The translations under genes and the position numbers were made by a program. A DNA stretch of 34,045 nucleotides from a virus: the IMG/VR virus record IMGVR_UViG_3300031974_000334, positions 1 to 34,045 of that record, one strand, 5' to 3'. The notes beneath the pieces are model-generated. The model had not been told where the DNA came from. It ran no database searches and was given only the letters and a program-made list of their open reading frames with translations. This document shows, piece by piece, positions 22,891 to 28,564 of this stretch; positions within the stretch are counted from its first letter, which is position 1; each line of letters begins with the position of its first letter.

Positions 22891-24060
22891 TCACTTTGTT
22901 TGATTGTTGACGTTGTTGTGCGCGTGACCCTGCGCTGGGATAGCAGCAAGTGTTTCCACATGCTGTATTCTTTCACCGATCCACCGCATAACTGGCACTG
23001 CCATAGAGTTGCCCATTGCCTTGTATCGCGGGCTGTCTGGGCAATCATCTGCCGATTTGTTGCGGTATGGAATGCGGGTGTAATCGTCTGGGAAACCTTG
23101 TAGGCGTTCGCATTCTTTAGGCGTTAATCTTCTGACTGTCATTTGCTGACGCAATAAAGGCGTGTTGCGCCCAGATGCATTGCAGTTTGTGTTCAAAGTA
23201 TTAAAAACATTTCCTTCACGCAGTTCGCCTGCTTGGTTTTGAGCAAAGCAAACAGCAGGCGTTTTGCTTTGGTCAAGGGTAGGCGTTACATCTGTTGACG
23301 CGCTTAGGCTTTGTGTAGAGCTATTCAGTGCGCCAAATACCAATGGCTTTGTCTCCCAATCAACGCCGCCCATGCCATATGATGCCGTTATTGAATTGAC
23401 CTTGTTTTGTTCTGTTACGAACTGCTCGGTTTGTGCATCGTATGCGCTTCCAACGCGGCTTGTAAGGCACTTGGCAACTTCTTGTTTCGCTTCTCGGCTC
23501 GGCGCAGGATGCCCTGACAGGCTTTCGCGCTCAAATAAAACCGCTGCGGCACGTCGCCAGTCTCCAAGGTATCCGACAACAAACACACGTCTGCGTCTTT
23601 GGGCCACTCCGAAGTATTGAGCGTCAAGCACTCTGTAGGCGAACCCATACCCGAGTTTGCCCAACGCCCCGAGGAAGGTTCCAAAATCCCGTCCTCTGTT
23701 GCTAGACAAGACGCCGGGCACGTTCTCCCAAACCAACCACTTGGGCTGATACTGTGCAGCAATGGCAAGATAGGTAAGCATGAGGTTTCCCCTTGGGTCA
23801 TCAAGTCCTTTGCGAAGTCCTGCGATGCTAAAGGCTTGGCAGGGTGTTCCTCCCACAAGAAGGTCAATTGGTCTGTCATTGGGCCACTCTTTGTATTTTG
23901 TCATATCACCAAGGTTTGGCGTGTCTGGATAATGATGCTGCAACACAGCACTGGGGAATGCTTCTATCTCACTGAACCACTGCGGTTGCCATCCAAGCGG
24001 ATGCCAAGCAACCGTTGCTGCTTCAACTCCTGAGCATACACTTCCATAATTAAAAGCCAT
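22891..24060 (-). CDS. DNA (cytosine-5) methyltransferase
   Basis: The 389-aa enzyme carries the C5-methyltransferase motifs in order: I (YGSVCSGVEAATVAW, residues 5-19), IV with the catalytic Cys74 (GGTPCQAFS), VI (WENVPG, Glu112), VIII (QRRRRVF, 154-160), a target-recognition region of ~140 residues, IX (VRRLTPKECERLQGFP, from 309) and X (AMGNSMAVPV, 348-357). It transfers methyl from S-adenosylmethionine to cytosine, probably to protect phage DNA from restriction. No cognate endonuclease lies beside it; the neighbour is a PD-(D/E)XK exonuclease-like gene. The recognition sequence cannot be read from the protein. Confidence 0.95.
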   Translation of the reverse strand: MAFNYGSVCSGVEAATVAWHPLGWQPQWFSEIEAFPSAVLQHHYPDTPNLGDMTKYKEWPNDRPIDLLVGGTPCQAFSIAGLRKGLDDPRGNLMLTYLAIAAQYQPKWLVWENVPGVLSSNRGRDFGTFLGALGKLGYGFAYRVLDAQYFGVAQRRRRVFVVGYLGDWRRAAAVLFERESLSGHPAPSREAKQEVAKCLTSRVGSAYDAQTEQFVTEQNKVNSITASYGMGGVDWETKPLVFGALNSSTQSLSASTDVTPTLDQSKTPAVCFAQNQAGELREGNVFNTLNTNCNASGRNTPLLRQQMTVRRLTPKECERLQGFPDDYTRIPYRNKSADDCPDSPRYKAMGNSMAVPVMRWIGERIQHVETLAAIPAQGHAHNNVNNQTK

Positions 24061-24796
24061 AAAGCTCTTCCCTTATTTCTTCCGCTCCGTTCCAGTAGAA
24101 CGTGTTTGGATTAACTGGGATAACGCTTGCAACATCTCTTGCATTTCCTGATCGAAGGAAACGCTCCATGCGCGTAATCTGGATTTTAGTTCTGCGAAGT
24201 ATCTCACTGGGATCACCGTCCTCTAACAAGTTTGTTTTCTTTGGCGTGACGTACAGGAACTTAACGATCTGGTTGCCCTTGGCTTTCTGGTAGATCGCGC
24301 GTTGTAGCTGATGCTCTGCTGACATGACGCTCGGGCAGCGTCCAGTTGTTTTCAGATCAATCACCACGCCGTGCTTTGGAAACACCAAGTCAAGGTAGCC
24401 GATGACAGGAATTTCGTAGTCGTCTGTCTTGGCTGTTATGCTGATCTTTTCCTGCCCGTCCTCTGGAAACTCAGGCTCGCCGTACTGCTCAAGCTCTTGT
24501 ATCGCCAGCTCCATGCATGGCTGTATCATGGCGCGTTCTTTCGTTGTCTTCTCATCACCGATGGGAAACGTTTGATCAAACTTCTCCAAGGCTGCATCCA
24601 GCGCACCGTCTGCGTTCTTGCCTTGCAGCACTGCCACCACTGCATCCTCTGTGCAGATGCCACGCATTGCAGCGGCTGACATGGGGCCGCGCCTGCCGAA
24701 CAAGTATTGAGCAACCCAAACATCAGGCGCGTTTGTCCATAGGTTTATGGATGACGGTGACAGGTGCTTGATGCCGTGTTTGTCAAAGCCGTTCAT
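24050..24796 (-). CDS. PD-(D/E)XK nuclease (RecB/Cas4-like exonuclease)
   Basis: The 248-aa protein has the fold's motifs: HLSPSSINLWTNAPDVWVAQ near residues 11-30, an early Glu (E50) after GPMSAAAMRGICTE, GYLDLVF with Asp136, VVIDLKTTG with Asp147 and Lys149, and HQLQRAIYQ (162-170). These are typical of RecB-like single-domain nucleases in phage replication operons. No Cys cluster of the Cas4 iron-sulphur type is present. It likely processes DNA ends for recombination-dependent replication. It overlaps the methyltransferase by 11 bases and the RuvC-like gene by 4. Confidence 0.85.
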   Translation of the reverse strand: MNGFDKHGIKHLSPSSINLWTNAPDVWVAQYLFGRRGPMSAAAMRGICTEDAVVAVLQGKNADGALDAALEKFDQTFPIGDEKTTKERAMIQPCMELAIQELEQYGEPEFPEDGQEKISITAKTDDYEIPVIGYLDLVFPKHGVVIDLKTTGRCPSVMSAEHQLQRAIYQKAKGNQIVKFLYVTPKKTNLLEDGDPSEILRRTKIQITRMERFLRSGNARDVASVIPVNPNTFYWNGAEEIREELYGF

Positions 24797-25260
24797 AACA
24801 TCTCTGCTCCGTATAATGCGATCAGCGCTGCTTCTGCTCTGCCGTCATCTTTGACGCGGCTGAAGTCGGCAGCGTTCTTTGGAAACCTTTGTATTGCCAC
24901 GCTGCGTGATACGCCTTTGTCGCGTGACAGGTTGAAGTGTCCCTTCCATTTGGCAGGCGTGACGTAGTGGATCGGCATTGCATGCGCTGCCACTGCCATC
25001 TGCGTTGCGCCGTATGTCTCACCGAAGCGGAACATAGACGACACGCCCTGCCCTCTCATAGCTGCCACCTGCTCTATGACTGCCGTGTGCGGGTGGTCAC
25101 CCTCTGGCGTGAGCAGACTGTGCAACTGGTGTAGGTTTAAAACCGTCTTGCCCTTGGCGTTCTTCATCGTCGGCATGTCATGCACTTCCAGCCAGTGCGT
25201 CTCTGACTGATAGAATGCCACCGCTCCCGAAAAGCCTGGGTCAATGCCGACATAGATCAT
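24793..25260 (-). CDS. RuvC-like Holliday junction resolvase
   Basis: The 155-aa product has the RNase-H-like resolvase pattern: YVGIDPGFSGAVAF with Asp7, HTAVIEQVAAM with Glu63, and RVKDDGRAEAALIALYG with acidic residues at 138-143. Length is close to RuvC (about 170 aa). It should resolve branched DNA before packaging. It is separate from, and too far away to be a fusion partner of, the Tas-like gene at 27857. It overlaps both neighbours by ATGA. Confidence 0.9.
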   Translation of the reverse strand: MIYVGIDPGFSGAVAFYQSETHWLEVHDMPTMKNAKGKTVLNLHQLHSLLTPEGDHPHTAVIEQVAAMRGQGVSSMFRFGETYGATQMAVAAHAMPIHYVTPAKWKGHFNLSRDKGVSRSVAIQRFPKNAADFSRVKDDGRAEAALIALYGAEML

Positions 25261-26986: not shown

Positions 26987-27505
26987 ATGGAAACTAAAGT
27001 AAAAGAACAAAATATCGTAACCGAAGCCATTGCAGAGGCATGGAAAGGCTCTATCAATGCAAAGCAAGCTGCGAAGAAATACTTAGCTATGCTTAAAGAA
27101 GACAAAGCATTACGCGATGAAGCGACAGAGGCTTGGTTAGAGCGCATCGCATATCAGGATGTGGTAAAATATCCGCGCAACTACCGCTCTACATTTAAGA
27201 GCAAGGTGCTGCAAAAAGGCGAGACAGCTACGCCCAGTGTTAATCTTGCAGGCGTCGTGTCTGTTTACGCGCAGGACATGTTTGAACGCTTCCGCTTGCC
27301 GATCAGTGGTGTGCCGCTTGGCGATGCCACACGTGAGGATTTAGGGAATGCAATCGCGCATGAAGGGTCACGCAGTACGCACCATGCGCAGCAGAAAGTG
27401 TTTTATGAAAAGATGCAAAAGCGCCTGTCTGGCAATGCACAAATTGTGCGTGAAGTCTGGACAACAGAGGAAGCTGAACGCGCCTATCAAGAGGCACTAG
27501 CATAA
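26987..27505 (+). CDS. Hypothetical protein upstream of the TIGR-like array
   Basis: This 172-aa protein starts after GAGGACAAG. It is helical and basic. An N-terminal HTH-like part (IVTEAIAEAWKGSINAKQAA, then KKYLAMLKEDKALRDEATEA) is followed by a Ser/Thr-rich middle and an amphipathic helical C-terminus. I do not recognise the family. It ends one base before the array begins and is on the same strand as the array and the Tas-like gene. It may be cotranscribed with them and could be a further part of that system or an unrelated early gene. Confidence 0.7.
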   Translation: METKVKEQNIVTEAIAEAWKGSINAKQAAKKYLAMLKEDKALRDEATEAWLERIAYQDVVKYPRNYRSTFKSKVLQKGETATPSVNLAGVVSVYAQDMFERFRLPISGVPLGDATREDLGNAIAHEGSRSTHHAQQKVFYEKMQKRLSGNAQIVREVWTTEEAERAYQEALA

Positions 27506-27517
27506 TGTTACAGGGGG

Positions 27518-27553
27518 TCATACGAGGAGCGCAGCAATGCCATGTATGGGTCA
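27518..27553 (+). ncRNA. TIGR unit 1 (putative 36-nt tigRNA)
   Basis: Variable segment A is ACGAGGAGC (27522-27530), the core is at 27531-27541, and variable segment B is ATGTATGGGTC (27542-27552). The closing stem is GGGGGT/ACCCCC (27513-27518 with 27553-27558). It is preceded by GTTACAG. Confidence 0.75.
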
Positions 27554-27574
27554 CCCCCAACTTTTTACAGAAGG

Positions 27575-27610
27575 CCATGTGAGATACGCAGAAATGCCAT
27601 AGCCATATCG
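27575..27610 (+). ncRNA. TIGR unit 2
   Basis: Segment A is GTGAGATAC (27579-27587), core 27588-27598, segment B ATAGCCATATC (27599-27609). The stem is short, AGGC/GCCT (27572-27575 with 27610-27613). It is preceded by TTTTTACAG and directly joined to unit 3. Confidence 0.7.
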
Positions 27611-27624
27611 CCTCAAGGGAAGGG

Positions 27625-27660
27625 CCATCAAACGTTTGCAGAGATGCCTCTATAGTGCCG
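27625..27660 (+). ncRNA. TIGR unit 3
   Basis: Segment A is CAAACGTTT (27629-27637), core with G and no A-A run (GCAGAGATGCC, 27638-27648), segment B TCTATAGTGCC (27649-27659). The stem is the longest, GGGAAGGGC/GCCCTTCCC (27617-27625 with 27660-27668). It is a close relative of unit 5. Confidence 0.75.
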
Positions 27661-27685
27661 CCCTTCCCAACAAGTTTAACAGGAG

Positions 27686-27721
27686 CCGTCATGACCACGC
27701 AGCAATGCCAAAATCCGAACG
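27686..27721 (+). ncRNA. TIGR unit 4
   Basis: The first conserved triplet is CGT instead of CAT. Segment A is CATGACCAC (27690-27698), core 27699-27709, segment B AAAATCCGAAC (27710-27720). The stem is GGAGC/GCTCC (27682-27686 with 27721-27725). Confidence 0.72.
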
Positions 27722-27735
27722 CTCCAATGGGAGAG

Positions 27736-27771
27736 CCATCAAACTTTCGCAGAAATGCCTCTATAGGGGCG
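27736..27771 (+). ncRNA. TIGR unit 5
   Basis: Segment A is CAAACTTTC (27740-27748), core 27749-27759, segment B TCTATAGGGGC (27760-27770). The stem is GGGAGAGC/GCTCTCCC (27729-27736 with 27771-27778). It differs from unit 3 at two bases in segment A and two in segment B. Confidence 0.75.
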
Positions 27772-27794
27772 CTCTCCCAACCAGTTACAGGGGG

Positions 27795-27830
27795 CCATCC
27801 AAAAATAGCAGCAATGCCATGTAATCCCCG
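27795..27830 (+). ncRNA. TIGR unit 6
   Basis: Segment A is CCAAAAATA (27799-27807), core 27808-27818, segment B ATGTAATCCCC (27819-27829). The stem is GGGGGC/GCCCCC (27790-27795 with 27830-27835). It is preceded by GTTACAG; the Tas-like gene starts 26 bases after the unit. Confidence 0.75.
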
Positions 27831-27856
27831 CCCCCACACTTAAGAAAGGAAAACAA

Positions 27857-28564
27857 ATGGACAAGAGATACGAAAACCCCACCATCGCAAAGATACAGTT
27901 TGCATGGCGCAACCGCCAGAACATGGTCAGAGCAGAGGCCAAGCTAGTCCTGCAAATCAAAGCCACATGTCGCGGCCTGCGCGATGGTGACATTAAAGAG
28001 GCAAACAAACTATTTGCGCAGCTAAAGAAAGGCGAGGCTACATTTGAGGCAACGACAGCCACGCAACCTTTGTTCGAGGCGCGTGAGCCACTACTAGAAG
28101 CCCGCAAAAACTTTGAGAAATATCTTGCAGATTTAGCTAAAGAATTACCCGCCGCAACATTTGTAGATAAGGTGAAAGGCTTTGGGCATCTTGGCCTTGC
28201 GGGTATCGTGGGTGAAGTCGGTGACTTCATGGCATACGAAAAAGAGTTGGACGGTATCTACAAACGTGCTGGGCTTGCCGTGATTGAGGGTGAGCGGCAG
28301 CGTAAGTGCAGCAATGCCGACATGGCCTTGATGCACGGTTACAGCCCATCCAGACACGCTGTGTTTTGGACGATTGGCGATAGCTTGCTAAAAGCGCAGG
28401 GCAAGGAAGAAAACGCAGGGCCATACAGAGTTATTTATGACAAGCGCAAAGAGTACGAACGTGAGCGCGTAGAGACAGACGGACACGCACACAATCGCGC
28501 ACTGCGATATATGACGAAGCGCCTTGTGCGTGACCTGTACAATGAATGGAAAGAGGTTGCTTAA
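27857..28564 (+). CDS. TasA-like protein (Nop/IS110 Transposase_20-like domain, no nuclease)
   Basis: The 235-aa protein starts after AAGAAAGGAAAACAA. Residues ~10-95 form basic and then acidic helices, probably a coiled coil. Residues ~101-235 resemble the C-terminal Transposase_20 part of IS110 proteins, which shares its fold with Nop proteins of box C/D RNPs. They include VDKVKGFGHLGLAGIVGEVG (103-122), YKRAGLAVIEGE, HGYSPSRHAVFWTIGDSLLK (160-179), GPYRVIYDKRKEYERER and GHAHNRALRYMTKRLVRDLY (209-228). The DEDD catalytic domain of IS110 is absent, as are HNH and RuvC motifs. A nuclease-less Nop-type protein next to a 36-nt guide array is the TasA form of TIGR-Tas. It should bind tigRNAs and target DNA without cutting; a remnant IS110-like protein is the alternative. 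Confidence 0.75.
   Translation: MDKRYENPTIAKIQFAWRNRQNMVRAEAKLVLQIKATCRGLRDGDIKEANKLFAQLKKGEATFEATTATQPLFEAREPLLEARKNFEKYLADLAKELPAATFVDKVKGFGHLGLAGIVGEVGDFMAYEKELDGIYKRAGLAVIEGERQRKCSNADMALMHGYSPSRHAVFWTIGDSLLKAQGKEENAGPYRVIYDKRKEYERERVETDGHAHNRALRYMTKRLVRDLYNEWKEVA

What the first reader, a model, noticed from the sequence alone, without database searches (positions are those of the whole stretch)
27506..28564. TIGR-Tas-like RNA-guided system: 36-nt hairpin array plus TasA-like protein
Six tandem units between 27513 and 27835 have identical internal spacing: CAT, 9 variable bases, GCAGNRATGCC, 11 variable bases, closed by stems of varying sequence but kept complementarity. Each spans 36 bases including one closing pair, the known length of tigRNAs. 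The next gene encodes a Nop/Transposase_20-like protein without nuclease domain, as in TasA. I have not seen this core sequence or this gene context described. Array plus protein in a phage genome fits the published TIGR-Tas group, but this may be a new subtype.
Basis: partly seen in the sequence, partly recalled or inferred. Interest (0 to 1): 0.96.

Follow-up and report, generated by a model that had tools for sequence, protein, structure and literature searches.

The report
Phage TIGR-TasA system, stem-loop guide array
A marine phage carries a small RNA-binding protein next to a row of six hairpin guide RNAs with swappable guide segments, a member of the recently described TIGR-Tas family of RNA-guided DNA-binding systems whose natural targets are still unknown.

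Summary
The array is real: six units at 27513-27835, all on the + strand, motif expected 0.02 times by chance. The next gene (27857-28564) is a Nop-only protein. Its profile hits TIGR-TasR (9MTY) at E 1.7e-11, and its model aligns to TasR at Z 14.4, rmsd 2.0 over 169 residues, without the RuvC part. So it is TasA with a stem-loop array, a kind already described by Faure et al. 2025. Fifty-four loci gave 453 units and 261 distinct spacer pairs. Each unit is: covarying outer stem, YCA, 9-nt spacer A, C, a GCA-GNRA-TGC mini-hairpin, CA, 9-nt spacer B, C, stem. Spacers turn over fast while the frame stays: phages with tasA 97-99% identical share only 21% of spacer pairs, and A and B are replaced together. 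Rhizobial (pro)phages, including isolate RHph_X2_25, carry a sister form with 30-nt loops. No target was found in any search. Best mechanism: non-cutting, two-strand, RNA-guided DNA binding.

The parts
27513..27558 (+). guide unit 1: stem GGGGGT/ACCCCC, spacer A TACGAGGAG, spacer B TGTATGGGT
27572..27613 (+). guide unit 2: stem AGGC/GCCT, spacer A TGTGAGATA, spacer B TAGCCATAT
27617..27668 (+). guide unit 3: stem GGGAAGGGC/GCCCTTCCC, spacer A TCAAACGTT, spacer B CTATAGTGC (same pair in L002, L003)
27682..27725 (+). guide unit 4: stem GGAGC/GCTCC, spacer A TCATGACCA, spacer B AAATCCGAA (box CG instead of CA)
27728..27779 (+). guide unit 5: stem TGGGAGAGC/GCTCTCCCA, spacer A TCAAACTTT, spacer B CTATAGGGG (related to unit 3)
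27790..27835 (+). guide unit 6: stem GGGGGC/GCCCCC, spacer A TCCAAAAAT, spacer B TGTAATCCC
27857..28564 (+). tasA: 235-aa Nop-domain protein without nuclease domain (long helices 8-41 and 63-94, C-terminal RNA-binding domain from about 100)
   Evidence: profile hit to TasR 9MTY E 1.7e-11 over residues 72-234; AlphaFold model pLDDT 84, best PDB match TasR Z 14.4

Best explanation
[quoted passage not shown] The array is probably transcribed with the co-directional genes, and each hairpin becomes one guide RNA. A TasA dimer holds the guide at its two pseudo-equivalent ends: the outer stem with its YCA and C-R boxes, and the GNRA-capped mini-hairpin with the same boxes. The two 9-nt spacers lie opposite each other in the internal loop and pair with the two strands of one target (spacer B followed by the reverse complement of spacer A), as shown for TasR. 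With no nuclease domain, TasA would bind and bend the target without cutting it, and so block transcription, replication or integration of other DNA, most likely of a competing phage or a host gene. Shown here: array anatomy, homology and fold, and spacer turnover with A and B replaced together. Inferred: transcription, processing, dimer, DNA binding, target and effect.
For: Motif far above chance and on the gene's strand only. Outer stem covaries. Mini-hairpin: the position 12-21 pair is GC 212, AT 29, GT 28, TA 3, CG 2 of 283; 241 GC or AT pairs against at most 206 in shuffles; GNRA in 92%. Spacer positions carry at most 0.14 bit each against 0.6-1.9 bit in the frame. tasA genes 97-99% identical share a mean of 21% of spacer pairs. 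Position-matched units: both spacers replaced in 202 pairs, one fully replaced with the other kept in 15; the core differs by 1.1 of 13 nt. A and B do not pair with each other beyond chance, as expected of guides. Protein: TasR E 1.7e-11; Z 14.4 TasR, 13.1-13.6 TasH, about 11 IS110, about 8 Nop5/Prp31. Of 19 related loci scanned, down to 34% protein identity, 17 have such units, all on the gene's strand.
Against: No target found: none above chance in 0.98 Mb of related phages, in rhizobial phages, in two hosts, in 298 Rhizobiaceae genomes (no positive control), in four exact IMG/VR scans or in GenBank phages. No expression data. RNAfold of single units does not always give the consensus fold. 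That DNA rather than RNA is the target is carried over from TasR/TasH.
Confidence: 0.78

Rival explanations
1. Same family, but the guides direct TasA to RNA (antisense-like binding of transcripts through the two-part internal loop, as with snoRNA guides) rather than to DNA.
For: The fold is shared with box C/D proteins Nop5 and with Prp31; a bipartite internal loop suits RNA targets too; no DNA target was found.
Against: The closest relatives by sequence and fold are TasR and TasH, which bind DNA; TasR did not act on RNA.
Confidence: 0.1
2. An IS110-like mobile element: the protein is a shortened transposase and the hairpins are tandem bridge-RNA loops.
For: PHROG 4285 is named transposase (E 5.4e-15); IS621/ISCro4 fit at Z about 11; a unit resembles one bridge-RNA loop.
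Against: The protein aligns to TasR only from its residue 107 on, so there is no room for a DEDD domain; nearly all loci have arrays of three or more guide units, not one bridge RNA; TasR and TasH fit better than IS110.
Confidence: 0.04
3. An ordinary structured regulatory RNA or a set of terminators of the phage, next to an unrelated gene.
For: Strong hairpins with G+C-rich stems between genes.
Against: No terminator-like sites in the array; no Rfam match; spacers are replaced while the frame is kept, the opposite of a fixed structured RNA; linked to tasA homologues down to 34% identity.
Confidence: 0.03

Closest known systems
TIGR-TasA with stem-loop array (Faure et al. 2025, Peromyscus leucopus gut contig, PMC12045711)
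   Same: Solo Nop protein; array of tandem hairpins with variable palindromic stems; [quoted passage not shown] phage or metagenome origin.
   Different: Here the part between the spacers is a 13-nt repeat with a GNRA mini-hairpin and the loop is nearly always 34 nt; the published example has 13 stem-loops in three subarrays. The sequence of that contig was not available for comparison.
TIGR-TasR / TIGR-TasH (dual-repeat arrays)
   Same: Homologous Nop domain; 9 + 9 nt spacers; edge and loop boxes with a covarying pair (UG...CCA there, C-R...YCA here).
   Different: No RuvC or HNH domain; variable stems instead of constant edge repeats.
IS110 transposases with bridge RNA
   Same: Nop-like RNA-binding fold, Z about 11; internal loop with two guides.
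   Different: No DEDD domain; tandem array instead of one bridge RNA.
Box C/D snoRNP and splicing Nop proteins (Nop5, Prp31)
   Same: Nop fold, Z about 8.
   Different: Phage-borne, no sign of L7Ae or fibrillarin partners, guide without k-turn.

Membership tests
TIGR-Tas (stem-loop array, TasA) | Tas protein with Nop domain | tested here: met
   hmmsearch of profile A1 to TasR 9MTY E 1.7e-11; model pLDDT 84, Z 14.4 to TasR over 169 residues
TIGR-Tas (stem-loop array, TasA) | TasA: no RuvC or HNH domain | tested here: met
   235 aa; alignment to TasR begins at its residue 107; no Pfam match at all
TIGR-Tas (stem-loop array, TasA) | array of repeated units next to the gene, each with two 8-12 nt spacers | tested here: met
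   six units with 9 + 9 nt spacers; low information at those 18 positions among relatives
TIGR-Tas (stem-loop array, TasA) | variable but palindromic stems in place of edge repeats | tested here: met
   97% paired in core-selected units, with compensatory changes
TIGR-Tas (stem-loop array, TasA) | box C/D-like motifs flanking the spacers with a covarying pair | tested here: met
   YCA before and C-R after each spacer; the R:Y pair covaries in the loop, CG/TA at the stem end
TIGR-Tas (stem-loop array, TasA) | array transcribed and processed to hairpin guide RNAs bound by Tas | not testable with these tools
   needs RNA sequencing of a TasA pull-down
TIGR-Tas (stem-loop array, TasA) | tandem-spacer binding of both DNA strands | tested here: inconclusive
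TIGR-Tas dual-repeat array | constant edge repeats between units | tested here: not met
   stems differ between units; 72 distinct stem pairs in 453 units
IS110 transposase | N-terminal DEDD RuvC-like domain | tested here: not met
   no sequence before the Nop domain to hold it; no Pfam match
CRISPR-Cas | constant repeats and Cas proteins | tested here: not met
   only the loop core is constant; tested neighbouring genes show no Cas family

The most novel reading that the evidence does not exclude
This lineage has an active, still unknown way of installing spacer pairs: A and B (9 + 9 nt) are exchanged together into an almost unchanged frame between phages with nearly identical tasA, and the 34-nt GNRA loop (marine phages) and the 30-nt loop (rhizobial phages) are two defined subtypes of stem-loop TIGR. 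The exchange could also be plain recombination among a large pool of arrays, which the data do not exclude.
Probability: 0.25. Interest if true: 0.72.

Novelty: new member of a known kind. Interest (0 to 1): 0.5.

Why it matters
What nuclease-free TasA proteins do, what they target and how TIGR arrays gain spacers are open questions stated in the 2025 paper. This lineage gives 54 comparable arrays in related phages, so turnover can be measured: spacer pairs are the fast-changing unit, and A and B travel together. Relatives in sequenced rhizobial strains and in the isolated phage RHph_X2_25 offer a system that can be grown and tested.

Tried and rejected
1. Targets among related phages: 283 loops, B + 0-2 bp + rc(A), up to 3 mismatches, arrays masked; counts equal those for shuffled pairs and for the three wrong arrangements. 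2. Coding-target idea: some spacer families looked synonymous when read as B + rc(A) (e.g. TMRLVD), but neither the synonymous fraction nor the agreement of A and B phase beat the controls; dropped. 3. Exact IMG/VR scans for four widely shared pairs: 7, 1, 0 and 2 hits, roughly what I estimate by chance from the collection's size; two of the seven are one marine virus (L124, L126) with a 2-bp gap, not convincing. 4. Rhizobial spacers against their own and other rhizobial phages, two hosts (the best hit spans a junction of the concatenated query), 298 Rhizobiaceae genomes (without a positive control) and GenBank phages: nothing. 5. The first structure model, from 14 close sequences, was poor (pLDDT 60) and matched mainly by its coiled coil; replaced by a model from 16 diverse sequences. 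6. The upstream gene 26987-27505 as a partner: relatives found only in the four closest phages. 7. Rfam: nothing.

Full report
Observation. The window is a 34,045-base virus record. Between an ORF without known family (26987-27505) and the gene at 27857-28564 lie six hairpin units on the + strand. The motif CRT-N9-GCAGNRATGCC matches six times in the window, only here; 100 shuffles gave a mean of 0.02. All six loops are 34 nt between the stem arms.

Relatives. Three searches of IMG/VR with the protein or its alignments found 57 loci with 65-97% identity and eight more at 32-52%. A scan of GTDB genomes found Rhizobium esperanzae SEMIA 4089 and Shinella sumterensis MEC087. GenBank phages gave Rhizobium phage RHph_X2_25, 34% identical. 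Five of 298 Rhizobiaceae genomes have it.

Anatomy of a unit. In 283 distinct 34-nt loops the conserved positions are CA at the start, C-R-C-A-G-N-R-A-T-G-Y-C-A in the middle and C at the end; 9 + 9 positions between them carry at most 0.14 bit each. To avoid circularity, stems were counted on 263 units chosen by the core alone: pairs 1-5 are standard in 95-100% of units, mean 97%, with shuffled maximum 82%; sliding the partner lowers pairing, and GC, AT and TA types alternate. The middle is a 3-bp hairpin with a GNRA tetraloop in 92%; its outer pair covaries (GC 212, AT 29, GT 28, TA 3, CG 2; GC or AT 241 against at most 206 shuffled), and a few units swap the third pair AT for CG or GC. The stem end shows the same Y:R pair beside CA. 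So both ends of the guide present the same boxes (YCA before, C-R after each spacer), like box C and box D of the edge and loop repeats in TasR arrays (UG...CCA). Spacers A and B show no complementarity or similarity to each other beyond chance.

Protein. No Pfam match; PHROG 4285, named transposase, E 5.4e-15. A profile of 14 relatives finds one significant chain among all solved structures: TIGR-TasR 9MTY, E 1.7e-11, residues 72-234 against 143-296, with a shared VE.DGHAHNRA stretch. A model from 16 diverse sequences has mean pLDDT 84 and pTM 0.78. Best PDB matches: TasR Z 14.4 (rmsd 2.0, 169 residues, from TasR residue 107 on), TasH 13.1-13.6, IS621/ISCro4 about 11, Prp31 and Nop5 about 8; Foldseek E 4.1e-6 for TasR. 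Helical proteins can give middling Z, but here the sequence hit and the order of families agree. The RuvC part is absent. This is TasA.

Spacer dynamics. Pairs of loci with tasA at least 99% identical (nucleotides) share 90% of spacer pairs; at 97-99% they share 21%; below 80% practically none. For units at matching positions (tasA at least 95% identical), spacer distance is bimodal: identical or replaced. Both replaced 202, both kept 100, one kept and the other fully replaced 15; the core differs by only 1.1 of 13 nt, stem and linker by 4.8 of 32. Unit-level exchange of pairs is therefore shown; whether the new pairs are acquired or recombined from other arrays is not. A few units share A with a different B, as crossover within the core would give. 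Some pairs are widely kept, e.g. TTGTTACCA/ATCTATGAT in ten loci.

Sister form. In rhizobial (pro)phages and some further contigs the units have loops of exactly 30 nt: CA, 9, a 9-nt middle like CGNNNCCCA, 9, C. Some units lie downstream of tasA. In 19 loci scanned beside the window, 17 have units, only on the strand of tasA; shuffles gave one unit in all. L169 and L170 have none that this strict scan finds. In RHph_X2_25 three units lie inside the annotated 5' part of the gene, so its start is probably annotated too far upstream (inference).

Targets. TasR geometry predicts B + 0-2 bp + rc(A) on one strand (my derivation from the cleavage rules). All searches listed under Tried and rejected were negative or at chance. 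Sensitivity was limited: the host of the marine phages is unknown (the terminase is nearest to HTVC010P-type pelagiphages, 58%), and metagenomes could not be scanned.

Known or new. Faure et al. describe stem-loop arrays with TasA, palindromic stems, two 8-12 nt spacers and, in some, an intervening sequence of conserved length and sequence. That covers this case. They also report that processed RNAs of such arrays have variable ends, so 36 nt is not a test. The sequences in their supplement could not be read here, so I cannot say whether this very lineage is in their table. Filed as a new member of a known kind; the GNRA loop and the measured pairwise spacer exchange are the parts that I did not find in the held literature.

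Noticed in passing
L009:2760-2815, L014:2644-2699, L032:2766-2821: A recurrent odd unit (stem TAGGAAAGG, loop like ACATAACTTTTACGCTCATCAAGCCGCCACTGTTTCTC) lacks the GNRA core and is nearly constant among phages, unlike its neighbours.
   Followed up: no
L002, between the units at 2551 and 2658: Unit GGGGC-CATCACGCGCCAGCGTTTACGTCATTCACAGACC-GCCCC has the stem but no GCAGNRATGCC core: decayed or a different guide type.
   Followed up: no
ten loci incl. L009:2306, L014:2315, L032:2543: Spacer pair TTGTTACCA/ATCTATGAT is identical in ten loci although the base before spacer B takes all four letters; its target may be unusually constant.
   Followed up: partly
L126:2240-2259 and L124:5610-5629: Two homologous virus contigs hold ATCTATGAT-GG-TGGTAACAA, an exact target of that widely kept pair with a 2-bp gap; the hit number is at chance level.
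   Followed up: partly
window 27836-27856: The window lacks the two tasA-proximal units (stems TTGGGC and GAGGC) that its closest relatives keep at fixed distance from the gene.
   Followed up: partly
window 24793-25260 (- strand): Phage-encoded RuvC-like Holliday junction resolvase (PHROG 1770, E 9.7e-36), 2.3 kb from the nuclease-free TasA.
   Followed up: no
window 22891-24060 (- strand): Looks like a C5-cytosine DNA methyltransferase (PCQ motif read from the translation, not profile-tested).
   Followed up: no
L119:5746-6801 (MW960032): The 5' part of the annotated tasA CDS contains three array units (5814, 5869, 5928); the start codon is probably annotated too far upstream.
   Followed up: partly
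L138:2400-2973: Array of 11 units alternating two nearly constant stems (TCCCGGCGGC and GGGCGCGC) with all spacers different.
   Followed up: no
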